Below, in pieces: positions 12,964-32,252 of a DNA stretch of 40,235 nucleotides. The notes below the pieces were generated by a model that was given only the letters and a program-made list of their open reading frames with translations, had not been told where the DNA came from and ran no database searches. The stretch lies in NCBI GenBank assembly GCA_012517875.1, contig JAAYUB010000153.1, positions 1 to 40,235 of the forward strand, in the 5' to 3' direction. The stretch's first letter is position 1. Each line of letters begins with the position of its first letter. The stretch comes from Acidobacteriota bacterium (GTDB lineage: Bacteria > Acidobacteriota > JAAYUB01). A program made the position numbers and the translations under genes.

Positions 12964-15900
12964 TCACGGCTTGCAGGGATTCCCGTCCTCTGATTCTCCG
13001 ACTGTCACCACCTGCTCCACCAGCACATCACCCAGACGTATGTACACATACCCGTCGTCCAACACCTGCAAATATTCCGGCGTCTCGGGATTACCTCTGT
13101 AGATCCAAATCCAGTAAGCGCCCGGAGGCAACGCACACAGGCGGACCAGACCACCGGCATCCGATTGACCGCTCAGCGCCCAGGGTTCCAACTCGTTGGT
13201 GTCACCGATCTCGGCGTAGACTCCCGCCAGCGGTTGTCCATCGATATCCTGCAATCGAAGGTGCAATTCAGCGCACGTTGGGCTGCACGGTGCAAGCGTC
13301 ACATTGTCTGCGGTCAGCACGCCATCGGGCAGAACCAGCGTCGCGCAGTAGAATCGGCGCTCCCGGTCCCAGGCATACACGTCATAGGCGGTCTCCGGAG
13401 CCACACCCAACGCCTGCCAGACACCCGCAGGCAGTTCAGCCACATCGAGCAGAGCCGGCGGCAGATCCGGGTCGGCCGGGACGAGATCCAGGTCGGTCAC
13501 CGCCGACACCAGCTCACCGGCACCATCCATTACGGCTCCACTGACCACCGACCATCCGGTCATCATATCGCCCAGATCGGTTTCCGGCCCTGTCAGGGTG
13601 ATCTCCCAGGTTTCGCTGCCGTCTCCCTGGCTCGGCGGTCCATCTAGAATCAGGCGCGCCCGGCCGGTCGGAAAATAGCCGAATCCATAGAACCGGCCGG
13701 TGTCCTCACATGCCGACCAGCCGTAACTGACATATTCGCCGCTGGCCAGCTGGCGTTCCCACCGCACGAACGCACTTTCAGGTAGCGGTCTCAGAAATGC
13801 CGCCGACCACAGGCGTCCAGTGACCATATATTCAGAACGCGGCGGGATCTGCACGTCGTCCAGTATTAATTCACCGGCCGGGAAGTTGATATCCGTCCTG
13901 TGATAACCACCGGTTTCATCCAGCGCCTCGAGCTGATACCCCTCCCCCGGCTTCATGCCCAGCACCGTAAACCGACCGAGCGCCACGAGAACCTGATTCG
14001 GGTTTGAATAGTAGAAGAGGTTCGACCCATCCGGCTGATGGGCGTAAACATTCACCCACAGTGGAATGCTCTCGATCGGCAGTCCAGTTTCTTCCGCAAC
14101 ATCACCAGAAACGGCGGTCACCCCGGTTTCCAACGGGATGGCGGCGCCACCGGCGGCCGCAACATCCACCAGGATTTCATCCTGCCCGTCACCTTGTGAT
14201 TCCGGCCATGGCACCACCAGGAGCGCCCGGCCGGTGGGCAGATGGTTGGAACCGAAATCAAAGTACCCTTCCTCAACCGTGCAGGCACTCCCCAGAGGAT
14301 AGAACTCGCCCGATACCGACTCCGCCCAAAGTTCCACTGGCCATTGGATCAAAGCGGCCCTGGCGCCGGCCGAGAACGCATTACCGTAGACAGCATACAA
14401 GTTCACCGGCAGGAGATGGATATCGGTGAGCACCAGTTGATGAGCCGGGAGCGTGACGGTGGCCCCGTAAGCGTTTCCGCCCGCATCCCAGGCAATCACA
14501 TCGTAAGTCACCCCGGGTTTCGCTCCCCGGATGAACCAGTTGCCGGAGGATTGGTTGGCAGTTGGCTCGCTAAGATCCGATTCATGCGGCCGGACCTGCA
14601 ATCCGACCAACCCGGTGACAGGAGCACCGCCCGCGTCGCGAGCGTCACCGCGTATCAGGCTGATCCGTGTTTCGAGCAATACAGTGGTCTGACCCGCCGC
14701 AGCATCCAGATCGGTCCAATCCTCTCCTTCCCCCTGGCTGCGGGGCCAGCGTGAAAGAATCCGCGCCCGACCCGTGGGCAGGAACGCATTGTTGAACCTG
14801 AAGGCGCCGTCGTAGCCGGAACTGATTGTCTGCGTGAGCACATATCTCCCGGCCGCTTCTTCCCGCAGGAGTTCCACGCTTTGATCCGCCAGCCTGGTGA
14901 TTCCATCAGCGGCTCTCACGATGCCGGTGACGGTGTATTGGCCGAATGCGCTGGATATCACAATCAGCCGATGCACACCGGGTTCGAGCACCAGCGGTAC
15001 TGCCGGTGTGCCTCGTCCGTCTACCTGGGCTGTATACTGAAGGTCCATGTCAGCCGGCAGGCCCGGGAACAACGCCTCGCCATCATCCCCAGTCCTGTGT
15101 GCCCAATTTAGAAACGCCGGAAATTGCGTCGAACGGACCTGAACTTCGGAATCCGCGATCGGCACACCTGCCTGGATTTCTGTGCGAACAGTCAGATCGG
15201 CACCGCCCCGATCCAGTACCAACGCGTGCAGGTCCAGGCTTTCGTCTGCCGGCACCCGAATCAGCGTCTCGAACAGCCATCGGCCGTCTGGGTGCTTGGC
15301 CAGGATTTCCAGATCGATTTCTCGGAGCGGATCCAGGTACACAAACCGCCCGTCGGCATCCGTGGTGCCGGCATTAACAGTCTCACTGTAACTGTTCCGC
15401 CTGAATATTAAAATGGATACACCTGTCTGGCCGATGCCCAGGTGGTCCACCACGCGGCCAGTCAGGTAATCTTGTTCTAGAACCATAGTGACGGCCGTTG
15501 TACGAGCCGCCGTCACCGTGACCGGTTGGGTGGCAGTACCAAATAGGGAGGTCACCGTCAGCAGGTAATCACCGGGCAAGACACCCGGAATCAGTCCGCC
15601 GCCACGTGACACCCGGCCGTGCCGGACACAAGCATCACCTGCCCGTTCCAATCGGAGGGTGCCATCAGGAAGCGGGTCGCCGGTGCTCAGGGTTACTGTC
15701 ACGGCTACCGCACCGCTATCGGACAAGACAAGCAGCTGGTCAACAGCCACCGGCTCGTCTGCGGTAAGCAGCACCTGGCTTATCGTCAACCAGCCACACT
15801 CCGGCGATCCGAAGATAATATCCGTCAGGCCCAATGGCAAAGAACGCGGCGGCGACGTCGGCAGAGATTGGAAAACACCCTGCCAGTCTGTATCGGCGAC

Positions 15901-18900
15901 CCGGCAACGGCGATATGGCACCGCTTCGCCGCGCAACAGCAAGGATTGCCCGGCCAATGGGTGTTCGTCTGGTGTAGCGTCCAGCAGCCGGCCGGAAACA
16001 CCGCCCACCAATGACGGGAGTTCGGGTGACGAGGGATCCGCCCCGCCAGCCCAGTTCAGATTGAGCACTTCGCGCCACCGTTCGTCCGGCACCCCGGCTA
16101 AAATCTCGGCCGGACAGGCGGCCAGGCGTTCCAGCGTCTCCACCGCATCGGATCGTGTCGGCTGCGCGGTCACACCCACGGCCAGGCCCAGCCGGCCGGG
16201 CATGCCGGGGGCGCCTGCCGGAATGACCAGATCGGTCCATCGCATGACCAATTGGCCGGCAGCGATCTCGACTGCCGACGGTGCCCGTGCCGTCTCCGCT
16301 TCGGCGAACACGACGCCCAGCGTGGGCATATTGGGCTCCATGGCGTCGTCCTTGTCCGCATCGTCGTCCAGCACCAGCCAGCGGTCCGTACCCCCGGAAT
16401 CGACGACGGCATCTCCACTGGATGTGGCGACCACATCCCAGTTCAACGCCTCCGGCAGCCGGAACGTCATCTCGATTGCAACCGGCACCGGAGTCAGTGC
16501 CGTATTACCCAACCACTCGACTACGCGTGCAAAATAACCGTCTGGCGGAACGAATATCCGTTTTTCCCAGCTTAGATCGTCCGAACCCAGATCCCCGGTC
16601 AGGCGGATTTCATGACCGTTCACGGCCAGCATCCCCTCCGGCTGTGCCGGCATGACGTGGGACATCCCGTCCACCCAGACCGTCACTTCCGGAACCAGGA
16701 CATCGGTCATCGGCTGGATCAGCGGATCCCACTCCAATCCGCCGTCTGTCTGGATGCGGAAACTGTAGTCATTGCCGTCTTTGACCGTATGCGGCAGAGC
16801 GACAGTTCGGACCACCTGGAATGTACCGTTGTACCGGGCGACGTTGCCGAGGGAATCGGTCACTGCCACACTCCAGACGTTGTCGCCGACGGCCAGCATG
16901 TCGTGATCCCACGGAACTTCGATGTAGATCCGGCCGTCATCGAGTACGAATTCAGTCCGGGTGCTCCCGTTGACGGTGACCACGAGACTGTCCGCATCCA
17001 AGTCGCAATTGTCCGTTACGTTGATGTCGAAGACGACCGTATCGGCCACGATACCCGCCCCCGCTGCCGGACTGGTCACGGTAATGATCGGCTGAGCTCC
17101 GTCCAGGGTGAATTCACTCAGGGCTTCCGCGATGTGGCCGGCGGCATCGGAGACCTTCATGTGAATGGTGTGGCCGCCGCCGACCAGCGGATCGGCGCCG
17201 GCGGGCGGATTCCAGACGCCTCCGGACGGGGTCAACTCAAATTCGGCCGTCCGGTCAACTGCATCGACTGTCACCCGGATGCCGGCCACATCGACGCCGG
17301 TGCCGTTGTCGCCGCAGGTAAATGCCAGCGGCGGCAGCGGATTGCAGAAATCTCCGGGACCTGGCAACTGCAGGGTCAGGTCAGGCGGCTGGCCGTCCCA
17401 GACAAAGTTGAAGCCGTAAGCAGGCGCGGTCCAATGGTAGATGTCGGTCATCGTGGCGGCGACATCGACTGGGCCGTCGCCTGCTGGCGCAAACGTTCCA
17501 TCAAGACGCCACATGCCACCGCCCTCGTCGACCAGGGTGGTGTCAGGACAGAGCGCCCCGGCGGCGGTCAGTGTCCCGGCGGCCACCGGATGGGCCGATT
17601 GGAACCGGACGCTCAGTCCGACCGGGATGACATCCACCACCAGTGCCGCGGCCGGCTGGTGCTCCAGCCAGGTGACGGCCGACCGGCGCACGGTGAAGTC
17701 GCCGGACCAATCGGCATAGTTGCCGACGAGGTCGGCCACTTGAACGTTAAGAGTCCAGCTACCGTCAGGCAGCTCGTCGATGGGCCCACAGGCGGCGCCG
17801 GACGCACTGAGCTGGAAGATCTCCAATGCCCGGCCGACTCCGCCTGCATCGGTCAGAGTCAACTGCACCGATTCTGGATCGACGCCGCGCAGAGCGTCGG
17901 CAAACGTCACCGCCAGCTCGGGTCGGGGAACCGGAAACATCTGGCCGGACCAGGCTGCGGTGACCACCGGCGGCTGAGTATCCTGCGTGTCGAAGGTCCA
18001 TCCATACGGCGCCGGCATGGCGTTACCGGCCACATCGCGCCAGCCATCGAGGACCACCCCATAACAGGCATCCGACTGCATACCGCCGTCCGGCAGGATA
18101 TTCAAAATGTGGCCGTCAGGCGACCATTCCAAGGAAGCTGCCGCCGGCACGCCGTCGCGACTCCAGGCGACGATGCCACTATTCGGAACAATGGGTTCGC
18201 TGAAGGTGACCTGAACCGGCCCGGTCGGATCCACCTGGATGGCCCCTGCTGGCGGGGTTACCGTCGACACCGCCGGCGGCGTCAGATCCACGGTTCGGAA
18301 GACCAGCTCCACCACCGCGCCCAAGGGATTGCCATTGGCGTCGGGAACGTCAGCTTCAATCACCAGTCGATAAGCACGAGAGTCGGCCAGCCCCGCCGGA
18401 ATTCCCTCGAAGACGATAGCGTCGACCGATGGCAGCACCGTCAGTCCGACCGGCCGCCAGACGGCGCCGTCGTAACTCTCTAACCGGATCCAACCGGGAT
18501 GGCCGGTCAGCCACTCGGCTTCCAGAGCCTCGCTGAAGGTGACGATCAAATGAGCGTCCAGCGGCACGGCCGTCTCCGGCCAGGTGGTGCCACCAGACCA
18601 GTAGGAGACTGCGTCGACGAACGGCGGGGTCCGGTCCAAAGTCAGGATGCCCAGGTCAACCCATGCCTCGTCGTCCACACCGGCCACCGACACGGCCAGT
18701 TGCAGCCGGCCACCGAACGGATCGACCACCTGCAACCGGCCGGGCAGGACCGGCAGATGTTCGAAGACGAAGATCCCGCTGTCACCGGTGGTGGCCAGCC
18801 GTTCCACCTCGCGCCCGTCCGGCCGCCGGCCCAGCCAGCGCACCGTCAGGTGGGAGGCCGCGGCGCCGTCGTCGGTCCATAGCACACCTCGCAGGCAGAA

Positions 18901-21900
18901 GGCCGGCTCCAGAGCCACCACCAAGCCTTCAATCCGTTCCCCGTCGGCCAGGTCGCCTTCGGCGGTTCCCTCCAAGGCGTGGTGGCGGTCCTCGGCCACC
19001 AGACGGAAATGGCCGGCCGGCACCTCGGGGAAGAAGAAGGCCCCCTCGTTGTCGCAAGCGGTTTCCGTCCGGAATTCGGGCACTTCGGTCTCGAGCCGTA
19101 GCACCGCCCCGCTCACCGGGTGGGTGCCGGCCTGGTTCCAGACCGCGCCACCCAGGGCGCCCACCCCGCTGAGCACCATCACCACGTCGTCATCGGCAGG
19201 CACATTGATCGGCTGAGAAATCCGGTTGACGCCCGATCCGGTCCAGGCGGCCAGGGTGTAGTCACCGAACAAGACGGAAGCGAACCGGAAGGTCCCTGTG
19301 GCGGTGGCGATCTGGCGATAGCTCCGCCCTTCGGCCAATGGAAGCAGTTCGATCCGCGCGTACGCAGCGCCGCTGCCGTCGGCGGACTGGATGGTTCCAG
19401 CCAAAGTCGCCATCGGCGCCAGGGGCACTACCAGGCAGGCCGTCTCGCCCGGCTCGAGCATGGCCTCAGCATAACCGGCCACCCCGGACGGATCGGCCAC
19501 CCGCACATCCACGCGGCCGCCGGGAACACCCGGAACGTAAAACCGTCCATCGGGACCGGTGGTTGTCTCAATGTCCCGCTCGGAATATGGCGAACCAGCA
19601 CACGGATGGATTCCGATCGTGACCCGGCGGGCGCTCAGTGACGATGAATCGGTGCAGACGACCGCGGCCGGATCGCCGTCCACCACCACCCCTTCCACCC
19701 CTCCCAAGGGATCGAGGACCAGTTCCATCGATTGCGGATCGTACTCGACGGATGGGATATCCACCTCGAGAACCGCCCGGCGGCCGGTGGCAAAGTCCTC
19801 CGCCCGGAGGATGTATTGTCCGACGGCCACCGCCGGCAGGACGAAGGCACCCAGGTCAGCCATTTCGGAATCGGTCACGGTGGCTGCCACGAGTTGGCCG
19901 GCCGCGCTGCGCAGGGTGATTTCCGCCCCTGGCACAGGCGCCCCGTCCGGCGGAGCGCCGTCGCGAACGACGCCGTGGAGAGTGACCACCGGGGTCATCA
20001 CCAGGTTGACGGTGAACATGCCACCGTCGCCCAGAATCTCGACGCCGCCGGTCGACGTCCGGACAGTCTCGCCGATCAAAACAACAGCGGACACCGTATA
20101 GGAACCTTCCCAGACAGCGTTGAATTGGAAGTATCCTGGATCGTCCGGTGCCCCGGTATAATCGGTGTCCCAAATGCTCTCGGCCCGGGCGCTCCAGGCG
20201 GGTTGTCCCTGCCGACTGACGGTCAACCAGGCATCCTGGAGCCGTTCTCCGTTGGCATGGAACAGGTGCACCTGAAGGGTGTTCTGCCCCAGCATGCTCA
20301 AGGTGACATCCATGTCGCCGTCGGCAGCGAAATAGAGTTCCCTCCACGCCCTGTCTCCGGTGTAGCCATCTTCAGCTTTGAGCACGTAGGCGCCAGCCGG
20401 CAGAGGTCCGGAAATGGCGAACCGTCCGTCCGCGTCAGTCCGGCAATCCCAGCACCGCCCGCCATGACCGGTCAGGGTCAGGGGAATGCCCGGCCGAACG
20501 GGTGTCACGCCGTCTCGTGCGTATAAGGTGCCGGTCAGGGTGCCGACCCCATCGGTGACGCCCAGCACCAGATCCACGCCGGCCAGGTCGGTTCCGGTGG
20601 CCAGGCCGCGCACTACCGCCGGCGGATAGAAGATATTGCCGGTGAACCGGATCGTGAAGGGACCGTCCCAGACATCGGTAAAGGCAAAGGTGCCGTCGGG
20701 GGCCGTCATTGTCCGGAACCGATCGGTCCAGTAGACCATCTCTCCGGTGGTTGCGCGGTCCAATCCGTCCAGGATCAAGGGCACACGGACTCCCTGGCCG
20801 GAAGCGTCCCGCACCTGGCCGGCCACTGTCCGACGGCCGCGCAAGCGAATCACCAGCGAGGTGCCTTCGGCCGGAACATCCACCGCTCCCGATTCCACCT
20901 CGCCGTCACACGCAGCCTGATACCGGTTGAGGCCCTGAGTCAGCCAGACCAGAAATCGGCCGTCAGCATCAGCAATTTCCGTGATACCGCTCAACCGGAC
21001 GGTGGCTCCGGCCGCTGCGGCTTTATCGGCTCGGATGACGCGACCCTGGACTGGGGCCAGGGCGGCCAGAACTAATTGGACCTGATGGGCGCCGGCTGTG
21101 ATCCAGACATGCTCCGTTACGCTGTCCCAATAACCAGGCCGAACGGCGGTCAACCGGTAGTGGCCGAACGGGATCGGCTGGACCCGGAATCGCCCGTCGC
21201 TGTCGGTTTCGAGATCGAGCTGGACTGTTTCCCATTCATCGGCCAGCTCCAAATGGACCGGCGCAAACGGGACGGCGTCCCAGGCTCCTCCGAAACCGGG
21301 TGTAACCACCCGGCCTTCGAGCGTGCTACCACCGGCAAACAGCACCTGCACCTCGGCAGTGCCGCCCGGCGCGACCGCGCCTTCGGCGGTGGCTACCGCC
21401 CCGCCGCTCGGGTGGATGCAGCGGATACGGAAAGAACCCCAAGGCACGGCAGTGAACGCGAATGCTCCGTCGCCGTCAGTCCACCCCTCGGTACTCCAAG
21501 CGGCACCGGGCACGCTGAGCGTCAGCCGGGCATAGGGGACGCCTCGTGCGCCGTTTGGCCCATCTTCCATGACCTGGCCTGTGACGCCTGCTCCGCCTGC
21601 CACCAGCAGTACCACTGCCGTGTCGTTGGGGCCAGCGATGTATCCGGCGCCTTCGATCCGCCGTCCGTCCCTGAGCCGGGCTTCAGCCCGGAACGGGCCC
21701 ACGGTGACGTCGTCGGCATGGAAACGTCCGTCCCCATCCAACAGCGCTGGCTGGCATCTGCCGTCACCACTACTGTGGATTCGAACGCCGAGGATGCTGT
21801 CGATGGGTGTCCCGAGCTCGTCCACCACCTGGCCCACCACCGCCCCTGAACCGTACAGGATGATCTGGGGATGGAGCACCTGGCCATCCGCCTGGAACAT

Positions 21901-24729
21901 CAGCGGCTCCCGCCGGCGGGAGCCTGTTGCCGGATCTCCAACTATCAGAAACAAGCCTGCCGGATATATGTGGATGAAATCCAGTTGAAACGTGCCGTCG
22001 TCGTTTCCGTCGAAACGGCTGAGACAGACATCCTGAATCCCCAGACCAGACCTGGTGACGGCCCACAACTCCACCGACGGTCTGACCACTCCCCGGCCAT
22101 CGGGGTAGCGTACGCGTCCCTCGACGCGGCCACCGGCCTCGTACGGTGAATCCGGATTGAGAATCCCCACCGGCCGGGTGTCCGCGACGACTGCTCCGTC
22201 GAGGCTCTTCACCTGTCCGATGGCCAACTCCGTCGTCACAAACTTGCCTACTGGCCGGTTCACGGCAACGCCGACAGTGCGTCCAGAACCGATCGGTGCT
22301 GCCAGCAGCACCTCGTTGTCGATGCATTCGAAGTATCCCAACGCCTCACCGGCCCGAAACCCGACCGGCCGGTTGAACAAGACCAGCACCCCGCGTCCGA
22401 ACTCGTCGGCACCGTGGAAAAGTTCCGGAGTCAGTTTCAGCACACACTCCACAACAAAGGGTGCCAGGGGCAGCAGGTGCTGGTCCAGTGGCGGCACAGC
22501 AGCCACGTTGTTACTGCCTTGTTGGATCTCAACGGCGACAGAAGTCCCTTGCAACAACATCGATGGAATCACCACCTGTTGACCCGGTGCGAGTTGGAAA
22601 GAGTACTTGAGGCTCTGGCACGTCTCCGATGACGCTGGACGGATGATCTCCAGCTCGACTGTTCCGCCGCCGGTCAGGGTGACTGAATCCCCATCCAGAG
22701 GGATCAGGCAAAGGAATTCCGGTCCGTCGCTGACGCGGACGACTCTCCCCCAATCGGATGCTGGCGTCAGTGCGGTCCGCAGAAGCGCAAAATCACCGCT
22801 GTATCCGGCGTGGAGAACGAGCGTGGCCGCCATGCTTGCCGGTTGGCCGGCTGGATCCAGGACAGCGGCGAGCGCCGCCATGAACTCAGCACCTCGGGGA
22901 CTCGATTCCAGGGTATGGTGGAAGCCCTCGTCGTTCCAGGCGATCTTCGCCAGATCTTCGGTGAACGAAGCGGCAACAGCCACCGGATTCCGGCCAGCGG
23001 CGGTGGCGAGCCCCGCTTCAGTGACGGCCCGCGCGAGCCCCTCAACCGATGATCTCTTAACGGTTCGGAATGCAGAGGGCAACAGCAAGGGTTGGGTTCG
23101 GCTCAGCGTGTGGCACAAACCCAGGAACGCCAGCGCTCGGCCGTAGAGAGGTTCTCCGAGCCGCGCCGCCACGGGGGGCAGCACCAGTCGGTCCGGATTC
23201 ATGGGTTGGCCAGCGGTGTCCACGCCGAACACCAACCGGGCGCCCACTTCCAGTCCGGCTGAATCGCCGGTGCCGTAATTGGCAGTCACCATGCCTGAGC
23301 GCAGCGCCCGAAAGCGGTAGCTCAGCACCACCGTCTCGCCCGGCGCCAGCACCGGGCGGCAGTAGATGGATGGATCGGCCGGACACGTGTCGTCCGTCGG
23401 GTAATCGGCGCCCAGCCATTCGACCCCGGTTATTGAGTCGGGGGCCAGACTCAACCGGAACCCGTTGGCGGGCACGTCCGACACGTTGGTCACATGGGCC
23501 TGGACGGAGTACGCGGCGCCGCGTTCGACCCGGTCGGGATGGATGAAGCTCAGCGAGAACCGCGGATTGTCGCGCACCGCCACTCCGCCCCGGGCCCGCC
23601 CCTCGATGGGCCAGCTCGGTTCGCCGGAGGCGGGCTCCAGGCGGCCGGCGATGTGGATGTCGAACTCGTGGTAGCCGACCTCGTGGCCCACCACGATCCA
23701 GCCCGCCGCGCCGGCGGCGCCGGGGGCGATCACCGGACCGGTGGCGCCGACGACGTCCTGGACCGCGGTGTTGGCATCGTCGGCGACCGGGGCCAGGCTC
23801 AGGGGGTCGCCCGGCTGCCAGTCCGTGCTCGCGGGGAGCGCCGCCTCCGCCGTCAGGTCGGCCAGGCGGTAGCCGCTCGCCGGCGGCAGGGCGTTGCAGA
23901 GGACCAGTTGGACGCTGAAGTGCCCGTTGAGGAACCCCACCGAGCCGGGGATGAGGATGAGACCGGGGAGGCGCACGTCGGCCGGCGGCAGGCCCGGCAC
24001 CGCCACCCCCGAGATGTCCAGGTCCACCGCGCCGATGGCGCAGTCCCCCTGCCCCACGTCCAGCAGCCCGCCGAATTCGGCGGGCGTCACGGGGACGGCC
24101 GGCGACGCGTGGATCACGGGGAACGCGTACTCCACCACCTGCCCCTCGAGCTCGAACCCCACGACGAACTGATAGTTCTGGTAGGCGCTCTCGTCGAAGA
24201 CGACGCCGGCGGCAAGCATCTCGGCCATCGTCATGGGCTCGGCGGTGACCCAGGCGATGAACAGGTCGCCGCCCACGTCCACGGCGGCGGTGTCGGGCGC
24301 GGCGTAGAGGAAGTCGCGCCCCGTGGCGAGGTTGACCAGCCGGATGTTGCGCAGGTGGTAGCGGCCCGGCGCGGTGAGGCCGTCCAGGAGGAACTCGCCG
24401 CCCACCGGGCACGCCAGCGCCCGCGGGAAACCCGGCGCGGCGGCCGGCGCGTACAACTCGGCGCGGACCTCGTAGCGGGACGCCAGGTACTCCCGGACGG
24501 CGCCGGCGTAGCCGGCGGCCGGATCGGCCAGCTCGATCCGGGTCCGGAGGCGCGCGGGCACGCCGGGCGGCACCACCTGCGCCACCGGCTCCACCTGCAG
24601 GCGGAACGCGGTGACCGGCACCTCGAAGCGGTGCAGCCGTCCGCCGCGGCCCTGCGCCATGGCGGCGGACGCCAGCAGGGCAAGGCCGACGCACGCGGCC
24701 AGGAGGCGCCGCGCGACGCATTCCGTCAT
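12964..24729 (-). CDS. Giant secreted protein of carboxypeptidase-regulatory-like and Ig-like modules, 3921 aa
   Basis: The start is placed at ATG 24729 because it begins a clear signal peptide (MTECVARR, a hydrophobic core, then cleavage near AMAQG). The frame stays open up to a GTG at 24927, but that codon overlaps the proposed promoter. Modules in order: an N-terminal beta domain (about 25-470); a short helical part (about 554-650); a long run of carboxypeptidase-regulatory-like repeats with GxVxGxV, DGxF and GxYxL patterns (about 862-2030); two Big_5-like domains beginning TPPFVDAVS and TPPAVSTVTP (about 2037-2255); Ig-like repeats (to about 2650); and a second regulatory-like run including three long PTGRAR repeats (about 2914-3810). 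No enzyme motif was seen. It ends 52 nt before the YD-repeat giant, so the two are probably cotranscribed. The likely role is a surface-attached or released stalk or adhesin; partner and ligand are unknown. Confidence 0.9.
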   Translation of the reverse strand: MTECVARRLLAACVGLALLASAAMAQGRGGRLHRFEVPVTAFRLQVEPVAQVVPPGVPARLRTRIELADPAAGYAGAVREYLASRYEVRAELYAPAAAPGFPRALACPVGGEFLLDGLTAPGRYHLRNIRLVNLATGRDFLYAAPDTAAVDVGGDLFIAWVTAEPMTMAEMLAAGVVFDESAYQNYQFVVGFELEGQVVEYAFPVIHASPAVPVTPAEFGGLLDVGQGDCAIGAVDLDISGVAVPGLPPADVRLPGLILIPGSVGFLNGHFSVQLVLCNALPPASGYRLADLTAEAALPASTDWQPGDPLSLAPVADDANTAVQDVVGATGPVIAPGAAGAAGWIVVGHEVGYHEFDIHIAGRLEPASGEPSWPIEGRARGGVAVRDNPRFSLSFIHPDRVERGAAYSVQAHVTNVSDVPANGFRLSLAPDSITGVEWLGADYPTDDTCPADPSIYCRPVLAPGETVVLSYRFRALRSGMVTANYGTGDSAGLEVGARLVFGVDTAGQPMNPDRLVLPPVAARLGEPLYGRALAFLGLCHTLSRTQPLLLPSAFRTVKRSSVEGLARAVTEAGLATAAGRNPVAVAASFTEDLAKIAWNDEGFHHTLESSPRGAEFMAALAAVLDPAGQPASMAATLVLHAGYSGDFALLRTALTPASDWGRVVRVSDGPEFLCLIPLDGDSVTLTGGGTVELEIIRPASSETCQSLKYSFQLAPGQQVVIPSMLLQGTSVAVEIQQGSNNVAAVPPLDQHLLPLAPFVVECVLKLTPELFHGADEFGRGVLVLFNRPVGFRAGEALGYFECIDNEVLLAAPIGSGRTVGVAVNRPVGKFVTTELAIGQVKSLDGAVVADTRPVGILNPDSPYEAGGRVEGRVRYPDGRGVVRPSVELWAVTRSGLGIQDVCLSRFDGNDDGTFQLDFIHIYPAGLFLIVGDPATGSRRREPLMFQADGQVLHPQIILYGSGAVVGQVVDELGTPIDSILGVRIHSSGDGRCQPALLDGDGRFHADDVTVGPFRAEARLRDGRRIEGAGYIAGPNDTAVVLLVAGGAGVTGQVMEDGPNGARGVPYARLTLSVPGAAWSTEGWTDGDGAFAFTAVPWGSFRIRCIHPSGGAVATAEGAVAPGGTAEVQVLFAGGSTLEGRVVTPGFGGAWDAVPFAPVHLELADEWETVQLDLETDSDGRFRVQPIPFGHYRLTAVRPGYWDSVTEHVWITAGAHQVQLVLAALAPVQGRVIRADKAAAAGATVRLSGITEIADADGRFLVWLTQGLNRYQAACDGEVESGAVDVPAEGTSLVIRLRGRRTVAGQVRDASGQGVRVPLILDGLDRATTGEMVYWTDRFRTMTAPDGTFAFTDVWDGPFTIRFTGNIFYPPAVVRGLATGTDLAGVDLVLGVTDGVGTLTGTLYARDGVTPVRPGIPLTLTGHGGRCWDCRTDADGRFAISGPLPAGAYVLKAEDGYTGDRAWRELYFAADGDMDVTLSMLGQNTLQVHLFHANGERLQDAWLTVSRQGQPAWSARAESIWDTDYTGAPDDPGYFQFNAVWEGSYTVSAVVLIGETVRTSTGGVEILGDGGMFTVNLVMTPVVTLHGVVRDGAPPDGAPVPGAEITLRSAAGQLVAATVTDSEMADLGAFVLPAVAVGQYILRAEDFATGRRAVLEVDIPSVEYDPQSMELVLDPLGGVEGVVVDGDPAAVVCTDSSSLSARRVTIGIHPCAGSPYSERDIETTTGPDGRFYVPGVPGGRVDVRVADPSGVAGYAEAMLEPGETACLVVPLAPMATLAGTIQSADGSGAAYARIELLPLAEGRSYRQIATATGTFRFASVLFGDYTLAAWTGSGVNRISQPINVPADDDVVMVLSGVGALGGAVWNQAGTHPVSGAVLRLETEVPEFRTETACDNEGAFFFPEVPAGHFRLVAEDRHHALEGTAEGDLADGERIEGLVVALEPAFCLRGVLWTDDGAAASHLTVRWLGRRPDGREVERLATTGDSGIFVFEHLPVLPGRLQVVDPFGGRLQLAVSVAGVDDEAWVDLGILTLDRTPPFVDAVSYWSGGTTWPETAVPLDAHLIVTFSEALEAEWLTGHPGWIRLESYDGAVWRPVGLTVLPSVDAIVFEGIPAGLADSRAYRLVIEADVPDANGNPLGAVVELVFRTVDLTPPAVSTVTPPAGAIQVDPTGPVQVTFSEPIVPNSGIVAWSRDGVPAAASLEWSPDGHILNILPDGGMQSDACYGVVLDGWRDVAGNAMPAPYGWTFDTQDTQPPVVTAAWSGQMFPVPRPELAVTFADALRGVDPESVQLTLTDAGGVGRALEIFQLSASGAACGPIDELPDGSWTLNVQVADLVGNYADWSGDFTVRRSAVTWLEHQPAAALVVDVIPVGLSVRFQSAHPVAAGTLTAAGALCPDTTLVDEGGGMWRLDGTFAPAGDGPVDVAATMTDIYHWTAPAYGFNFVWDGQPPDLTLQLPGPGDFCNPLPPLAFTCGDNGTGVDVAGIRVTVDAVDRTAEFELTPSGGVWNPPAGADPLVGGGHTIHMKVSDAAGHIAEALSEFTLDGAQPIITVTSPAAGAGIVADTVVFDINVTDNCDLDADSLVVTVNGSTRTEFVLDDGRIYIEVPWDHDMLAVGDNVWSVAVTDSLGNVARYNGTFQVVRTVALPHTVKDGNDYSFRIQTDGGLEWDPLIQPMTDVLVPEVTVWVDGMSHVMPAQPEGMLAVNGHEIRLTGDLGSDDLSWEKRIFVPPDGYFARVVEWLGNTALTPVPVAIEMTFRLPEALNWDVVATSSGDAVVDSGGTDRWLVLDDDADKDDAMEPNMPTLGVVFAEAETARAPSAVEIAAGQLVMRWTDLVIPAGAPGMPGRLGLAVGVTAQPTRSDAVETLERLAACPAEILAGVPDERWREVLNLNWAGGADPSSPELPSLVGGVSGRLLDATPDEHPLAGQSLLLRGEAVPYRRCRVADTDWQGVFQSLPTSPPRSLPLGLTDIIFGSPECGWLTISQVLLTADEPVAVDQLLVLSDSGAVAVTVTLSTGDPLPDGTLRLERAGDACVRHGRVSRGGGLIPGVLPGDYLLTVTSLFGTATQPVTVTAARTTAVTMVLEQDYLTGRVVDHLGIGQTGVSILIFRRNSYSETVNAGTTDADGRFVYLDPLREIDLEILAKHPDGRWLFETLIRVPADESLDLHALVLDRGGADLTVRTEIQAGVPIADSEVQVRSTQFPAFLNWAHRTGDDGEALFPGLPADMDLQYTAQVDGRGTPAVPLVLEPGVHRLIVISSAFGQYTVTGIVRAADGITRLADQSVELLREEAAGRYVLTQTISSGYDGAFRFNNAFLPTGRARILSRWPRSQGEGEDWTDLDAAAGQTTVLLETRISLIRGDARDAGGAPVTGLVGLQVRPHESDLSEPTANQSSGNWFIRGAKPGVTYDVIAWDAGGNAYGATVTLPAHQLVLTDIHLLPVNLYAVYGNAFSAGARAALIQWPVELWAESVSGEFYPLGSACTVEEGYFDFGSNHLPTGRALLVVPWPESQGDGQDEILVDVAAAGGAAIPLETGVTAVSGDVAEETGLPIESIPLWVNVYAHQPDGSNLFYYSNPNQVLVALGRFTVLGMKPGEGYQLEALDETGGYHRTDINFPAGELILDDVQIPPRSEYMVTGRLWSAAFLRPLPESAFVRWERQLASGEYVSYGWSACEDTGRFYGFGYFPTGRARLILDGPPSQGDGSETWEITLTGPETDLGDMMTGWSVVSGAVMDGAGELVSAVTDLDLVPADPDLPPALLDVAELPAGVWQALGVAPETAYDVYAWDRERRFYCATLVLPDGVLTADNVTLAPCSPTCAELHLRLQDIDGQPLAGVYAEIGDTNELEPWALSGQSDAGGLVRLCALPPGAYWIWIYRGNPETPEYLQVLDDGYVYIRLGDVLVEQVVTVGESEDGNPCKP
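13290..14940 (-). repeat. Three tandem ~180-190 residue repeats with PTGRAR and SQGxG motifs
   Basis: Three diverged units lie near the C-terminus of the 3921-aa protein. Their anchor motifs are LPTGRAR (14761-14781), LPTGRAL (14221-14241) and FPTGRARL (13651-13674), spaced 180 and 189 codons. Each anchor is followed by a Pro-x-SQG-(E/D)G segment (WPRSQGEGED, WPESQGDGQD, PPSQGDGS). Later come a KPG/APE-xxYxxxAxD segment and an LPxxxLxxxDxxLxP segment. Each unit opens with Y-x-V-x-G, as in carboxypeptidase-regulatory-like domains, so each probably contains two such folds. Confidence 0.8.
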
Positions 24730-24902
24730 CCGTTGTCGGCGTTCACCGCCGATCCGGCGCGGATGTCGCGGCATCCGCGCAACGTGGCGGCTCCGGCTTG
24801 CGCCGGCCCTCCCAAACACCCGTACCCTCCCCGGCCGGCCGGTACCCATCCGGCCCTGCCCGCCCGAAGGCTCACACTCCCAATCCGAGGTAAATTGCCC
24901 GG

Positions 24903-24931
24903 ATTCTACCCAACCACATCCGGCCACGCAA
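24903..24931 (-). promoter_or_regulatory. Candidate sigma-70 promoter for the giant gene pair
   Basis: On the minus strand TTGCGT (24926-24931) is followed after 17 nt by TAGAAT (24903-24908). The -10 matches the consensus at five positions; the -35 is weak. It would give a leader of about 165 nt before ATG 24729. The box lies in the only AT-rich stretch upstream of the giant genes. Confidence 0.4.
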
Positions 24932-25529
24932 GAAAAAATGTCAGCTTCGCGAAAATTTTATCCCGGCCATTCAATATATATAACGGATGAAAGCAGCGGG
25001 TGTCCGAAACAAATTGTCGGAGGGGACGGGTGAATGAGGGCGGATAGCATTCATCGATCAGCTTTCATTGGTCATTGGTCATGGATCAATTTCCATTTGT
25101 CATTGAGCATTTCAGATTATTGGTGATTGGTGATTGCTTAATTGTGATTGGCTATTTGGAGGCGAGGTGGATCATCTTTCATTGATCATTTTTCATCGGT
25201 CAATTTTCATTTGTCATTGGGTGTTTGGAGCGTTGAATGGGTGAATCGGTGAATGGGCATAATAATCCGGGTTCCGTGATCCAGGGCCCAGGTCCGATCT
25301 CCGATATCCAATTTTCTGCAGTCCGATGTCATCGGGCATTTGGGAGCGGTGACGAGGTGAATGAGTCAAGCGGAATCGGCAACTATTTCGGAACTCCTGC
25401 GGATGGGCGCTGTCTAACGGATTGAGAACGGTTCGACCCGCCAGGCCTGGTCGAGGTCAGCCTGCTCCAAAATCCCCGCGACGACCGCCGGTCGCCGCCA
25501 GCGGCCGCGACGGTCGGGAGGAGGTTGAC
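24932..25529. other. Gene-free spacer between giant gene pair and tonB
   Basis: This ~600-bp spacer separates a divergent pair of transcription units. It is much richer in A+T than the flanking genes, and its centre (about 25052-25254) is a degenerate heptanucleotide array. A small open frame at 25237-25425 is low-complexity and has no ribosome site, so I do not call it a gene. No convincing tonB promoter, RNA gene or terminator was found. Confidence 0.6.
25052..25254. repeat. Degenerate heptanucleotide tandem repeat array
   Basis: From 25052 to 25156 the sequence divides into fifteen consecutive 7-nt units in one register, starting CATCGAT, CAGCTTT, CATTGGT, CATTGGT, CATGGAT and ending with GGTGATT, GGTGATT, GCTTAAT, TGTGATT, GGCTATT. 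After a 16-nt GC-rich interruption a second block (25173-25221) has seven units from CATCTTT to CATTGGG. A third short block (25234-25254) reads TGAATGG, GTGAATC, GGTGAAT. The consensus is close to CATTGGT. It resembles the short tandemly repeated heptamers known from intergenic regions of cyanobacteria and some other bacteria. Confidence 0.75.
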
Positions 25530-26327
25530 ATGTTCCAGACGCTCGCGACCACACCCGCAAGCACCGTCCAGTACCGGCTGCCCCTCACCCTCATGGCGGC
25601 CACCGTCGTGCACGCGGCGCTCGTGACAGCGCTCATGATCTTCCCCCTGCTCTTCCCGAACCGCGTGCCGGACAGCCTGAGCCAGCTCCTGATCGTCCTG
25701 CCCCAGGGGGACATGGTCTTTCCGCCCGCGGCGCCGCCCGTGGCCTCCCCGCCGGAAGACGCCACGCCCCGCGGCACGCCAGCGGCCCCGCTGGACATCA
25801 AACCCGACGTGATGTACAGCCCGGCCACGATCGCGGACACGATTCCGCCCGACACCGACATCGGCGATCTCATCGGCCAAGCCGGCGCCGGCGCGCCGAG
25901 ACCCGATTTCCACGGCGGGATCCCGGGCGCCGGCATCGCCGGCCCCGGCTACGGCCTGCCCGGCATGGCCCCGACGGTGGGCGGATACCACCCGCCGGAG
26001 CCCCCGCCGCCACCCCCGCGCCAGCCCGCGGAGCGCCGGGCGCCGCTGCCGCCGCGGGTGCTGGCCGCGCGGTTGCTGCACGCCGAGCCGCCGGCGTACC
26101 CGGTCATCGCCCAGGCGAGCCGCACCGAAGGGGACGTGGAGCTGAAGGTCACCGTGGACGAGCACGGCCGGGTGACCGAGGTCACGGTCCTGGGCGGACA
26201 CCCGCTGCTGGTGCCGGCGGCGGTGGCGGCCGTCCGCGGCTGGGTGTACCAGCCCACGCGGGTCAACGACCAGCCGGTGCCGGTGGAGGGCTACATCGTG
26301 GTGAAGTTCCGGCTGGGCCGCCGGTGA
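25530..26327 (+). CDS. tonB: Energy transducer TonB family protein
   Basis: This 265-aa protein couples the inner-membrane proton gradient to outer-membrane TonB-dependent receptors. ATG 25530 is chosen because GGAGG lies about 6 nt upstream; the longer open frame (from TTG at 25422) has no comparable site. A single membrane segment lies at about residues 17-43. A long Pro/Ala/Gly-rich periplasmic linker follows, including a PPEPPPPPP run. The C-terminal TonB domain (about 180-265) has AYPVIAQASRTEGDVELKV, a DEHGRVTEV turn, and the late YQPT and VKF strands. No exbB or exbD gene lies next to it, so energising partners must be encoded elsewhere. It is convergent with manC, with 41 nt between the stops and no clear terminator. 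Confidence 0.92.
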   Translation: MFQTLATTPASTVQYRLPLTLMAATVVHAALVTALMIFPLLFPNRVPDSLSQLLIVLPQGDMVFPPAAPPVASPPEDATPRGTPAAPLDIKPDVMYSPATIADTIPPDTDIGDLIGQAGAGAPRPDFHGGIPGAGIAGPGYGLPGMAPTVGGYHPPEPPPPPPRQPAERRAPLPPRVLAARLLHAEPPAYPVIAQASRTEGDVELKVTVDEHGRVTEVTVLGGHPLLVPAAVAAVRGWVYQPTRVNDQPVPVEGYIVVKFRLGRR

Positions 26328-26368
26328 CGGATCGCGGCGACCGCCCCACGGCTGTCGGTGCAGTTTGT

Positions 26369-27451
26369 TTACAGGTATTCGTCCTGGCCGTCCGCTTCCA
26401 GCTTCTGGACCACCTGGCGGACTTCCTGCGCTTTGTCCTTGTGCGCCACCAGCACCGCGTCGCGGGTGGCCACCACCACCAGGTCCTCGACGCCCACGCA
26501 GGCCACGAGGCGGTCGCGGGCGCACACCACGCAGCGGCGGGTGTCCACCAGGATCATGGGGGCGCCGATGGTCACGTTGGAGTTGTCCACCGCCAGCACG
26601 TCCTCCAGGGAATCCCAGCTGCCCAGATCGCTCAAGCCGAAATCGCCCCGGGCCAGGACGATGCGCCGCGATTTCTCCATGATGCTGTAGTCGATGGAAA
26701 TGGACGGCAGGCCCTGAAAGACGCGCTCCAACTCGGCATCGCCGGTGCGCAGGTGGTCGCCGGCCTCCGCCAACTCCGCCAGGGGGCGGATGATCTCCGG
26801 GGCGTACTGGCGCAGCTCCTCGATGATGACCCGGGCTTTCCACACGAACATGCCGCTGTTCCAGTAGTAGTTGCCCTGGGTGACATACTCCTCGGCTAGC
26901 GAGCGGTGGGGCTTTTCAACGAACTGGTCCACGTTGAGCAGGGCCACCCCGTCGGCGCTGCTCACGATCTCCGACGCCTGAACGTAGCCGTAGCCGGTGT
27001 GCGGGTGCGTGGGGATGATGCCGAAGGTGATGAGGCGGTCGTTGGCCTCGGCGCTCTTGAACACGCTGTCGAGGAGCTGCTGGAAGCGGGCCGGCTCCTT
27101 GACGTGGTGGTCGGCCGGCAGCACGCAAAGCGTGCCCTCCGGGTCCCGGTGCTGGACCACCAGGGCCGCCAGGGCGATGCACGGCGCCGTGTTCCGGGCC
27201 ACGGGCTCGCCGATGATGTTCTCGGCAGACAGCTCCGGGGCCAGCCGGCGGACCAGGTCCACGTGGTCCCGGTTGCAGATCACCAGCGTGCGCTCCGGCG
27301 GCACCAGCGGGCGGACGCGCTCCAGCGTCAGCTCAAAGAGCGACCGGTCGCACCCTCCCAGCGTCAGGAACTGCTTGGGCAGCTGGCGGCGGCTCCACGG
27401 CCAGAAGCGGGTGCCCGAACCGCCCGCCATGATCACAGCATGTCGTGCCAT
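26369..27451 (-). CDS. manC: Mannose-1-phosphate guanylyltransferase
   Basis: A 360-aa nucleotidyltransferase that makes GDP-mannose from mannose 1-phosphate and GTP for polysaccharide or glycolipid synthesis. The signature loop GGSGTRFWPWSR (about residues 10-21) with the downstream LPKQF lysine binds nucleotide. PADHH, FVEKP, YYWNSGMFVW, SIDYSIME and GSWDSLEDV are the characteristic GMP motifs in their usual order. The length matches the monofunctional enzyme: there is no C-terminal phosphomannose isomerase cupin domain. ATG 27451 follows AGGGGG at about 7 nt. A strong promoter lies just upstream, and hom diverges from the same 148-bp spacer. With ugd and the glycosyltransferase nearby, a role in surface polysaccharide is likely. 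Related hexose-1-phosphate guanylyltransferases cannot be excluded. Confidence 0.93.
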   Translation of the reverse strand: MARHAVIMAGGSGTRFWPWSRRQLPKQFLTLGGCDRSLFELTLERVRPLVPPERTLVICNRDHVDLVRRLAPELSAENIIGEPVARNTAPCIALAALVVQHRDPEGTLCVLPADHHVKEPARFQQLLDSVFKSAEANDRLITFGIIPTHPHTGYGYVQASEIVSSADGVALLNVDQFVEKPHRSLAEEYVTQGNYYWNSGMFVWKARVIIEELRQYAPEIIRPLAELAEAGDHLRTGDAELERVFQGLPSISIDYSIMEKSRRIVLARGDFGLSDLGSWDSLEDVLAVDNSNVTIGAPMILVDTRRCVVCARDRLVACVGVEDLVVVATRDAVLVAHKDKAQEVRQVVQKLEADGQDEYL

Positions 27452-27477
27452 ACGAATACCCCCTGAATGACAGTCGC

Positions 27478-27505
27478 ATTATACAGAGTCCGCGCCAATT
27501 TGCAA
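27478..27505 (-). promoter_or_regulatory. Sigma-70 promoter for manC
   Basis: On the minus strand TTGCAA (27500-27505) and a perfect TATAAT (27478-27483) are separated by 16 nt. This places the transcription start near 27471, about 20 nt before ATG 27451, which leaves just enough room for the AGGGGG ribosome site. Confidence 0.75.
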
Positions 27506-27544
27506 GCCGGCCGCGGCGCGGGGGGCGGCGCCGCGCAATGGGTG

Positions 27545-27573
27545 TTGAATTCACCTGCCGAACGGGATACATT
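27545..27573 (+). promoter_or_regulatory. Candidate promoter for hom
   Basis: TTGAAT (27545-27550) and TACATT (27568-27573) are 17 nt apart on the plus strand, with ATG 27600 about 27 nt beyond the -10. The spacing is ideal; the -10 is moderate. Confidence 0.5.
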
Positions 27574-27599
27574 GGACGCATCAACCGCAGGAGAGCCAC

Positions 27600-28649
27600 A
27601 TGAAGAGCGTCCGGATCGGAATTATCGGGTTCGGCAAGGTCATCCGCGCCTTCCTGGAACTGCTCCCCGACAAGCGCGACTGGATCAAGACCCGCTACCA
27701 GCAGGATCTGCAGATCGTCGCCATCTGCGACAGCACCGAGTACATGCACAACCCGGACGGATTCGACCCCGGCGAGCTCCTCGCCTACAAGCTGGAGAAG
27801 ATCGCCTCGGACAAGCGGGGCCGCCCCCTGGACCAGTCGGAGGTGGGGTACGTGGTCAACTCGTTCCTCGAGATGGGCGTCAACGTGGCGGTCGAGGCGC
27901 TGCCGCCCACCCGAGAGACGGGTGAGCCGGCGCAATCGTACCTCCTCGCGTTTCTCAACGCCAAGGTCCCCGTGGTGACCGTCAACAAGTCCCCTCTCGT
28001 CTACGGCTACCAAACGCTCTACATGGCCGCCCGGAAGCAGCACGTCGCCTTCAAGTTCAGCGGGACCACCGGCGCCGCGCTGCCCACCACCGATACCGTC
28101 GCCACCGCCCTGGCCGGCGCCGAGTTGTACGGATTCGAGGCCATCCTGAACGGCACCACCAACTTCCTGCTCACCGAGATGATCAAGAACCAATCGGACC
28201 TGGCCACGGAGCTGGAAATCGCCCAGGAGCTCAAGATCTGCGAACCGGACCCGTCGCTGGACATCAACGGCTGGGACACCGCCTTCAAGACCCTCATCCT
28301 GGCCAAGGCGTTCATCGACCCGTACGTCGAATTGCCCGACGTGCAGGTCCAGGGCATCCAGTCGCTCACTTACGCCGACATCGAACCGGTGATCCAGGCG
28401 GGCAACACGCTGAAGCTGCTGGGCAAAGCGGGCTTCGAAAACGACCGATTGCGCCTCCGGGTCAAGCCCTCAATCATCACCCCGGAGCACCCGTTCTTCC
28501 ACGTCGACGGGACGACCAAGGCCATCACTCTGTTCACAGACACCATGGGGCGCCTCACCATGATCGGCGGTTCATCCGGACTGAAGGAGACCGCCGCCAC
28601 CATCCTCAAGGACCTCGTGAACACGCACCGGGATTTCAGCCGGATCTAA
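27600..28649 (+). CDS. hom: Homoserine dehydrogenase
   Basis: This 349-aa oxidoreductase reduces aspartate semialdehyde to homoserine with NAD(P)H, the branch step to threonine and methionine. The N-terminal Rossmann motif is GIIGFGKV. The central part has TVNKSPLV with the nucleotide/substrate-site lysine, FSGTTGAALPT, and the family signature ILNGTTNFLL. The acidic stretch EPDPSLDINGWDTAFK carries the catalytic Asp/Lys region. The protein ends soon after the catalytic domain and has no C-terminal ACT domain, so classical threonine feedback control is not expected. The start has AGGAG about 7 nt upstream. It is a single-gene unit, convergent with the glycosyltransferase gene; no other threonine-pathway gene is adjacent. 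Confidence 0.92.
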   Translation: MKSVRIGIIGFGKVIRAFLELLPDKRDWIKTRYQQDLQIVAICDSTEYMHNPDGFDPGELLAYKLEKIASDKRGRPLDQSEVGYVVNSFLEMGVNVAVEALPPTRETGEPAQSYLLAFLNAKVPVVTVNKSPLVYGYQTLYMAARKQHVAFKFSGTTGAALPTTDTVATALAGAELYGFEAILNGTTNFLLTEMIKNQSDLATELEIAQELKICEPDPSLDINGWDTAFKTLILAKAFIDPYVELPDVQVQGIQSLTYADIEPVIQAGNTLKLLGKAGFENDRLRLRVKPSIITPEHPFFHVDGTTKAITLFTDTMGRLTMIGGSSGLKETAATILKDLVNTHRDFSRI

Positions 28650-28689
28650 GCGGACGGCCGCTCGGGGTGGACGGGCCGCCGGCAGGAGC

Positions 28690-29676
28690 TCACCCGCGCA
28701 GCGCAGCCATCAACCGGCGGAAGGAGATCACCCGGTTTCCCTGGACAATCCGCCGCTTGCGCCACATGGCCCGCAGACCGCGGATCGCATCCCAGTGAGC
28801 CCTCAGGAACAGGACCAGGCGCCCGTGCACGAGATGGTACATGAGGCTGCGCACCAGTTCCGCTGCCAGCAGCGGCACCGCCAACCAGAAATAGCTCCCT
28901 GGACAGTTCTTAACCAGAAAGAACACCCGGTTGCGTACCAGCAAGAAGTTTTTGCTCTTATAGTCCCTATTTTTATAGATTTCTGAATCATACCGCCCCA
29001 CACTTCCCCCCTCGTGGTGGAACACCGTCCACTCAGGCAGAAGGCACCCCTGAGCGCCGCCCAGAAAGGCCCGGAAGAACAGATCAACATCCTCGTAGTA
29101 CATGAAGAAATCTTCGTCAAATGCCCCATATTGATCGAAAAATTCGCGTCGGAACAGCACTGCGGAACAGGAGGCGGACGTAAGCAACCTCCGGCCGGCC
29201 CCGCGGGGCTTGTCCGCCGGCAGTCCACAGCATCGCTTGAAGGGCATGAGGCGCAGATTGACGCCGTCGCCCGCGCTGTCTACGATCCCTCGATCGCCGT
29301 AGCGCAGCACCAGCGGGGCGGCGAAGTCGTAGGCCGGCTGGGCTTCCAGAAACCGCTGGCAGCCGTCGAGCCAGTCGCCGGGCCAGGCGGTGTCGTTGTT
29401 GATCACGGCGATGTAGCGCCCCGCTGCGGCGTGGAGCCCCTGGTTGACCGCGCGGGCGAAGCCGGCGTTGGCGGCGTTTGCGATGACCCGGACCCGCGGG
29501 TGCAGCGCGCGGGCCAGCTCCGCCGAGCCGTCCGAGGAGCCGTTGTCCACCACGAGGATCTCCATGCGGGCGGCCGAATCCCCCGCACCGAGGCACGCCA
29601 GCACCTCGCGCAGGAACGCGGCGCCGTTCCAGTTCGGAATGATCACACTGAGTTCGGGATCGGACCGTGAGTCCAC
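28690..29676 (-). CDS. Family 2 glycosyltransferase, rhamnosyltransferase-like
   Basis: A 328-aa GT-A fold enzyme that probably adds a sugar to a growing surface polysaccharide. SVIIPNWNG opens the fold near residue 10. The nucleotide-sugar site has DNGSSDGS and NNDTAWPGDWL (metal-binding DxD position), and the acceptor side has FFMYYEDVDLFFRA and HHEGGSVGR. The C-terminus is basic with a hydrophobic patch that could touch the membrane. The start is GTG 29676, 13 nt after the ugd stop: no ATG precedes the SVIIPNWNG strand, and GGCGGG lies 6 nt upstream. It is the second gene of the ugd operon. A local AT-rich patch with AAA, AAT, TCA and AGG codons lies at about 28940-29000. Donor and acceptor cannot be told from sequence. 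Confidence 0.9.
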   Translation of the reverse strand: MDSRSDPELSVIIPNWNGAAFLREVLACLGAGDSAARMEILVVDNGSSDGSAELARALHPRVRVIANAANAGFARAVNQGLHAAAGRYIAVINNDTAWPGDWLDGCQRFLEAQPAYDFAAPLVLRYGDRGIVDSAGDGVNLRLMPFKRCCGLPADKPRGAGRRLLTSASCSAVLFRREFFDQYGAFDEDFFMYYEDVDLFFRAFLGGAQGCLLPEWTVFHHEGGSVGRYDSEIYKNRDYKSKNFLLVRNRVFFLVKNCPGSYFWLAVPLLAAELVRSLMYHLVHGRLVLFLRAHWDAIRGLRAMWRKRRIVQGNRVISFRRLMAALRG

Positions 29677-29689
29677 GCAGCGCCCGCCG

Positions 29690-31018: not shown

Positions 31019-31051
31019 GCCCACACCTCAGTCGATTGGATCAAATGCGGC

Positions 31052-31080
31052 ACTATAGCGGATTCAATCGCCACTTTCAA
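31052..31080 (-). promoter_or_regulatory. Strong sigma-70 promoter for ugd operon
   Basis: TTGAAA (31075-31080) and TATAGT (31052-31057) on the minus strand are separated by exactly 17 nt. The -35 overlaps the TGA stop of the upstream HAD gene (31077-31079), so ugd can be expressed independently of it. The leader would be about 25-30 nt. Confidence 0.7.
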
Positions 31081-32000: not shown

Positions 32001-32067
32001 TGGTCCGTTCGTCCTTTCATCTTGAGGTCCGCCGGGTTGGCCCGAGCGCTTGTCATCACCAGCCCCA

Positions 32068-32095
32068 ATCATAAAGAATTATCCGGAAGATGCAA
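32068..32095 (-). promoter_or_regulatory. Candidate promoter for the HAD hydrolase gene
   Basis: On the minus strand TTGCAT (32090-32095) and TATGAT (32068-32073) are 16 nt apart. The -10 matches consensus at five of six positions. Transcription would begin near 32061, so translation from an ATG at 32072 is excluded and the start near 32000 is supported. Confidence 0.5.
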
Positions 32096-32112
32096 GTCGG
32101 GCCTTGGAGAAT

Positions 32113-32222: not shown

Positions 32223-32252
32223 CAAGTAAACAAAATGTTAATCCGATCCTAT

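What the first reader, a model, noticed from the sequence alone, without database searches (positions are those of the whole stretch)
25052..25254. Heptanucleotide array in the longest intergenic region
Twenty-five heptamers in three blocks keep a strict 7-nt register despite base changes. Within the first block the consensus shifts from CATTGGT to GGTGATT while length is kept. Such arrays point to slippage or templated expansion and may act as a protein-binding or nucleoid site. It lies between the giant genes and tonB, the only long AT-rich spacer in the window.
Basis: partly seen in the sequence, partly recalled or inferred. Interest (0 to 1): 0.5.

Follow-up and report, generated by a model that had tools for sequence, protein, structure and literature searches.

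The report
Dispersed seven-base repeat between genes
The array is one full and one partial copy of a short, decayed repeat scattered between genes in this bacterium and its two nearest relatives; it looks more like slippage-grown filler DNA, lying where gene order has changed, than like a switch for its neighbours.

Summary
The array is real. Lag-7 identity in 25052-25254 is 0.52 against 0.29 in shuffles (0 of 2000 reach it). It is not one array in strict register but two copies of a dispersed ~140-bp family: a full copy (25047-25174) of TCATTNN heptads plus a non-tandem tail, and a heptad-only copy (25171-25220) in another register. The 'shift' to GGTGATT is the family's conserved tail (42 of 69 profile matches reach it), not local drift. 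The family occurs in 3 of 3 genomes of the genus; 2 of 393 other genomes of the phylum gave a match, both short and heptad-only. 0 of 69 matches are mostly coding, no gene orientation clearly dominates, and no fold is conserved. Most same-site copies are less alike than their flanks, though not at the window locus. In 20 kb compared with sister G001, the one change of gene partner falls at the array. Best reading: a genus-specific variant of the known intergenic heptanucleotide repeats, grown by slippage, spread early, mostly inherited in place, passive substrate for rearrangement. Protein binding and templated expansion found no support.

The parts
25047..25174 (+). Full copy of the dispersed ~140-bp family: TCATTNN heptads at 25051-25113, non-tandem tail at about 25114-25170
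   Evidence: Profile match of model positions 4-124, 94.4 bits; alignment of 37 near-full copies; phases
25171..25220 (+). Second, heptad-only copy, in another phase
   Evidence: Profile match of model positions 14-63, 29.1 bits; 25161-25257 is 79.8% identical to the array beside the giant gene in G001
25234..25257 (+). Three copies of an octamer unit (TGAATGGG), a word that also forms many arrays elsewhere in the genus
   Evidence: Tandem Repeats Finder; GGTGAATN x3 occurs 89 times in G000, 80 in G002, 67 in G001, 0 in three other genomes of the order, reversed control 0
12964..24729 (-). Left neighbour: giant gene with CarboxypepD_reg and Big_5 domains; start inferred at 24729
   Evidence: ORF list, Pfam, sequence
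25390..25417 (+). GGAACT - 17 nt - TCTAA, inside a stretch conserved in three species; looks like an ECF-sigma promoter of tonB (consensus recalled, not from a call)
   Evidence: Sequence, three-species alignment
25530..26327 (+). Right neighbour: tonB; ATG at 25530 after GGAGG, in frame with ORF 25422-26327
   Evidence: TonB_C, 60.5 bits; sequence

Best explanation
The array is one full and one partial copy of a dispersed, intergenic, genus-specific repeat family: a short run of degenerate TCATTNN heptads joined to a non-tandem tail. Shown here: the family, its spread, its absence from mostly coding DNA, and its place at a junction where gene partners differ between species. Inferred: the heptads grew and change by replication slippage in 7-nt steps and decay by point mutation; the unit spread in the ancestor of the genus and is now mostly inherited in place, with some gene conversion between close copies; it has no sequence-specific job and serves only as scattered homology at which gene order is sometimes broken.
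For: Dispersed family: 72 BLAST matches at E up to 10 in the own genome, 69 profile matches in 82 fetched stretches. Genus-restricted composite. 0 of 69 matches more than half coding, gene contexts mixed. No conserved fold in 25 copies. Eight loci hold the element or its heptads at the same place with both flanks collinear between species. Period 7, 14 or 21 in 24 of 37 intergenic tandem-repeat rows of 20 sampled stretches against 12 of 95 coding rows. 7 nt is the commonest gap longer than 1 nt (6 of 33). In 14 of 20 same-site or same-flank pairs that I kept, the element is less alike than each flank available. Two G001 copies are 98.4% alike while their G002 counterparts are 91.5% alike, which suggests gene conversion.
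Against: The tail is non-tandem and well kept (positions 60 onward carry more information than the heptads), which slippage alone does not make. In 5 of the 20 kept pairs the element is more alike than the flanks and in 1 it lies between; 3 of the 5 pairs that involve the window are among those higher ones. Four of the six 7-nt gaps involve the window and are not independent, one comes from a doubtful pairing. In G001 and G002 the reversed control pattern is also frequent (10 and 10 against 33 and 14). How the unit spread was not seen.
Confidence: 0.58

Rival explanations
1. A non-autonomous mobile element: the ~140-bp unit was moved as a piece by a transposase supplied elsewhere, for instance a Y1 (IS200/REP-type) transposase of the genus.
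For: Dispersed unit with a conserved non-tandem tail. Absent at C82 in G001 where G000 has it. Y1_Tnp genes in 3 of 3 genus genomes, 17 matches; a copy lies within the fetched flank of 3 of 10 such genes.
Against: Two of those three are one orthologous pair; 7 of 10 loci hold no clear copy. No fold or paired ends. Ends are ragged. No match in phage, plasmid or viral collections.
Confidence: 0.2
2. A protein-binding or regulatory site, for tonB or for nucleoid organisation.
For: It lies 170-340 bp upstream of a conserved, promoter-like stretch of tonB, and the tail is present before tonB in three species. At the window locus the element is not less alike than its flanks in 3 of 5 pairs.
Against: Block 2 is replaced in both sisters, and G001 has the tail without the heptads. 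Copies face genes in all four arrangements (-- 22, +- 17, ++ 14, -+ 12, 4 undetermined).
Confidence: 0.1
3. The junction giant gene - array - tonB is partly an assembly error made at repeats, so the break of gene order is not real, although the array is.
For: G000 has 182 contigs; octamer arrays run to within a few bases of contig ends C82, C86, C128 and C161. No reads could be checked.
Against: Copies of the family are mostly 79-85% alike within a genome (medians), poor material for a misjoin. In G001 the giant gene is linked through an array to another gene inside a 49-kb contig.
Confidence: 0.1
4. RNA-templated or enzyme-templated expansion of heptads.
Against: No RVT_1 match in 3 of 3 genus genomes; the control finds it in 3 of 14 named genomes. 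The register breaks between blocks.
Confidence: 0.02

Closest known systems
Intergenic heptanucleotide simple sequence repeats of bacteria (GGGAATC in Xanthomonas, GGGGA(C/T)T in Nostoc; PMC4692102, passages read)
   Same: Unit of 7, dispersed and intergenic, partly degenerate units, length and sequence variation between close species.
   Different: Other unit, no G-quadruplex motif, and here heptads are joined to a conserved non-tandem tail.
TAACTGA direct repeats of Beggiatoaceae, Cyanobacteria and Bacteroidetes (PMC4679880, abstract and sections 3, 10, 23 read)
   Same: Intergenic heptamers with patchy distribution; mixed heptamer assemblages and a possible role in rearrangement are discussed there.
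   Different: In the orange Guaymas genome they sit just before start codons in one orientation; here there is no such placement.
STRR heptamers of heterocystous cyanobacteria (name recalled; listings only)
   Same: Heptamer arrays between genes. TCATTNN arrays do occur in Nostoc and relatives.
   Different: No shared composite unit; other heptad words are not shared beyond chance in the sample tested.
REP/BIME elements and their Y1 transposases (recalled)
   Same: Short dispersed intergenic repeat; a Y1_Tnp gene lies beside one copy in two species.
   Different: No hairpin in the family; the hairpins that flank the C125 transposase are another sequence.

Membership tests
Intergenic heptanucleotide simple sequence repeats | Tandem period of 7 above chance | tested here: met
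   0 of 2000 shuffles
Intergenic heptanucleotide simple sequence repeats | Many copies, intergenic | tested here: met
   0 of 69 matches more than half coding, 9 with a smaller overlap
Intergenic heptanucleotide simple sequence repeats | Length change in steps of 7 | tested here: inconclusive
   6 of 33 gaps are 7 nt; pairs not independent
TAACTGA-type translational repeats | Placed just upstream of start codons, one orientation | tested here: not met
   Mixed contexts and distances
REP/BIME elements | Conserved hairpin | tested here: not met
   0 predicted pairs on 25 copies
REP/BIME elements | Copies flank the transposase gene | tested here: inconclusive
   3 of 10 fetched Y1_Tnp loci hold a clear copy, two of them orthologous
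MITE-type mobile element | Inverted ends and target-site duplication | tested here: inconclusive
   No pairing in the consensus and ragged ends; target duplications were looked for only by eye in the few alignments
Protein-binding or nucleoid site | Bound protein | not testable with these tools
   Needs footprinting or pull-down

The most novel reading that the evidence does not exclude
The heptad elements and the other short-unit arrays around them are the main places where gene order is reshuffled in this genus: arrays change partners between unlinked loci by recombination, so that intergenic repeats steer genome rearrangement while the genes beside them stay about 85-95% alike.
Probability: 0.2. 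Interest if true: 0.55.

Novelty: new variant of a known kind. Interest (0 to 1): 0.36.

Why it matters
Heptamers are described as over-represented among bacterial simple repeats, with polymerase slippage offered as a possible reason (PMC4692102 and PMC4679880, both citing Mrazek and others 2007, which I did not read). Related genomes with part-decayed copies at the same sites would let growth, spread and rearrangement be separated. For the window itself the message is sober: the array should not be read as a regulatory site of tonB without further proof.

Tried and rejected
Conserved fold of the family: 0 pairs predicted on 25 copies. Rfam on the window at gathering scores: 0 matches. tRNA: 0. 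Viral, phage or plasmid origin: no match, but one search used one exact 27-base pattern and one 120-base copy. Heptad words shared with other phyla: of 38 and 88 non-TCATT words 4 are shared, 2.6 expected, 135 of 500 shuffles as high (which used 80 of the 115 stretches), so rejected. Reverse transcriptase: none. Y1 transposase as mover: kept as a weak rival. Outgroup gene order in G003: not settled; my tonB translation was out of frame, and the other proteins tested gave no match in the two G003 stretches. Paper searches. One search looked for six array strings and listed 7 papers, none about such arrays by title and start of abstract; no listing of the six described this family.

BLAST counts rest on 40 scored candidates a genome and on at most 2, so they are lower bounds. 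The 20 stretches were picked by contig number, not drawn at random; the other stretches were mostly fetched because they hold arrays, so profile counts are not genome totals. For the comparison of element and flank (26 pairs) I dropped 6: one window copy against the other, one 14-base overlap, two pairs that look mismatched or within one genome at shared flanks, and two paralogous pairs. The gap count of 33 uses all 26.

Full report
Observation. In 25052-25254 the identity between bases 7 apart is 0.520. Dinucleotide shuffles give 0.289 on average (sd 0.034, maximum 0.403; 0 of 2000 reach 0.520), and no shuffle reaches it at any lag from 4 to 29. Sliding 203-base windows peak here. The heptads keep phase inside a block but not between blocks: the starts 25051, 25117 and 25172 are three phases; 8 of 9 and 7 of 7 units match TCATT at four or more of five positions in blocks 1 and 2.

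Anatomy. The spacer between the giant gene and tonB is 800 bp (24730-25529, gene starts set by hand), against 152 bp for the next longest gap between my gene calls. From left to right it holds nine heptads, a non-tandem tail, seven more heptads, three octamers, a stretch of CCAGGTCC-like sequence, and then a stretch conserved in three species with GGAACT, 17 bases, TCTAA, and the tonB start ATG at 25530. The promoter type is recalled knowledge of ECF sigma consensus, not a call.

A dispersed family. BLAST of 25030-25270 gives 72 matches at E up to 10 in the own genome, and at E up to 0.001 61 in G000, 52 in G002 and 46 in G001, the three genomes held of the genus. These include octamer arrays and rest on 40 scored candidates a genome. 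An iterated profile search over 82 sequences (61 stretches of G000, 20 of G001 and G002, and the window) gave 69 matches, 42 of them reaching model position 114 or beyond, that is, the tail; in the alignment of the round before, 37 of 67 copies are near full. Most stretches were fetched because they hold arrays; the 20 that were picked by contig number (267,974 bases) gave none. The core of the consensus is TCATTGATCATT-TTTCATTGGTCATTTGTCATTGG-TCATTTCGGATTATTGGTTATTGGTGATTGCTTATATTTTATTGGCTATTTGGAG in outline, with ragged ends.

Distribution. Exact TCATTNN x3 is found in 11 of 60 genomes, G000 included: G000 20, G001 33, G002 14, with the reversed control at 1, 10 and 10, so the contrast is weak in G001 and G002; G003 (same family) and G004-G005 (same order) have 0. 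One near-consensus copy searched against 396 genomes of the phylum matches 5: the three of the genus, and G029 and G187 with 40-43 bases of heptads only. In named genomes TCATTNN x4 occurs in Cyanobacteria, Bacteroidota, Verrucomicrobia, Chloroflexi, Acidobacteria and others by record title; that scan stopped at 115 stretches. The heptad core is thus widespread while the composite unit was found in this genus only. The organism could not be named.

Genome habit. In the 20 sampled stretches 24 of 37 intergenic tandem-repeat rows have period 7, 14 or 21, against 12 of 95 coding rows (rows overlap, gene calls are home-made). Around the arrays many other units occur, such as ACCTGGG, AGCCTCG and AACCATC. 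In the sample tested they are not shared with other phyla beyond chance.

Function. By home-made codon-usage gene calls, 0 of 69 matches are more than half coding and 9 overlap a call to a smaller degree, although 86% of the fetched G000 DNA is called coding; contexts in element orientation are -- 22, +- 17, ++ 14, -+ 12, with 4 undetermined. 25 aligned copies share no fold. Of 20 same-site or same-flank pairs that I kept, the element is less alike than each flank available in 14, between the flanks in 1 and more alike in 5; 3 of those 5 involve the window. The flanks are largely coding, so this is a mild argument for weak constraint, and at the window it does not hold. Before tonB the tail is kept in three species, G001 lacks the heptads, and block 2 is replaced in both sisters by GGGACCTG-like units. 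Block 2 does have a relative, 79.8% over 99 bases, in the array beside the giant gene of G001.

Origin and change. Eight loci have the element or its heptads at the same place with both flanks collinear in two or three species. Gaps between compared copies: 11 of 1 nt, 6 of 7 nt, 5 of 3 nt and 11 of other lengths, 33 in all; four of the 7-nt gaps involve the window and one comes from a doubtful pairing. Two G001 copies in one contig are 98.4% alike, their G002 counterparts 91.5%, which suggests gene conversion. At C82 the G000 copy is absent from G001, and at two C167 places G000 lacks the tail that the sisters have.

Gene order. Over window 18000-37999, G001 matches 18002-25105 on contig C180 and 25281-37999, with gaps, on C93; the one change of partner is at the array. 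On C180 the giant gene is followed by an array, a gene X with a signal-peptide-like start, a second array and gene Y; in G002 a relative of X stands at the array before tonB; in G000 contig C77 a relative of X, a shorter array and Y are neighbours. The X genes are 73-78% alike in DNA, so they may be paralogues. At C14 the two flanks lie in opposite relative orientation in G002. With the eight collinear loci, C82 and C77, that makes 2 of 12 loci broken, without a baseline. A further change of contig in G001 at 15321-15477 of L069 falls at another multi-copy stretch that is not heptad-like. The giant-gene contig of G002 ends before the array and the tonB contig of G001 ends just beyond it, so those junctions are unknown. 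No reads could be checked.

Literature. PMC4679880: abstract and sections 3, 10 and 23 read. It cites Mrazek and others 2007 for heptamers as the most abundant long simple repeats in most genomes, and suggests rearrangement for some arrays. PMC4692102: passages read; it describes heterogeneous GGGANTN heptads that vary between close species. Both describe this kind of thing with other units.

Verdict. Real, dispersed, genus-restricted in its composite form as far as searched, most likely slippage-grown and without a specific job; of moderate interest for the heptamer question and for the gene-order break.

Noticed in passing
window 25374-25530: The 5' leader of tonB is strongly conserved in three species and holds GGAACT-17 nt-TCTAA, like an ECF-sigma promoter (consensus recalled).
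   Followed up: partly
L042 (G000:C125) about 1670-2480: A Y1_Tnp gene (157-aa frame) between two GC-rich hairpins that are inverted copies of each other, next to a copy of the element; resembles a REP-transposase unit, and G001 has the same locus.
   Followed up: partly
L235, L237, L046 and the end of G000:C82: GGTGAATC octamer arrays run to within a few bases of contig ends C86, C128, C161 and C82, so they probably break the assembly.
   Followed up: no
window 3-12959 and 12964-24729, minus strand: Two giant genes side by side: one with RHS repeats, Glucodextran_B, Big_5 and DUF6531, one with CarboxypepD_reg and Big_5 domains.
   Followed up: no
L265 1601-2812, L263 2515-3555, L067 1803-2924: Gene X, a family with a signal-peptide-like start, lies beside arrays in three species, next to different neighbours.
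   Followed up: partly
L069 (G000:C82) 15323-15491: Another multi-copy stretch of about 170 bp, not heptad-like, at a change of contig in G001.
   Followed up: no
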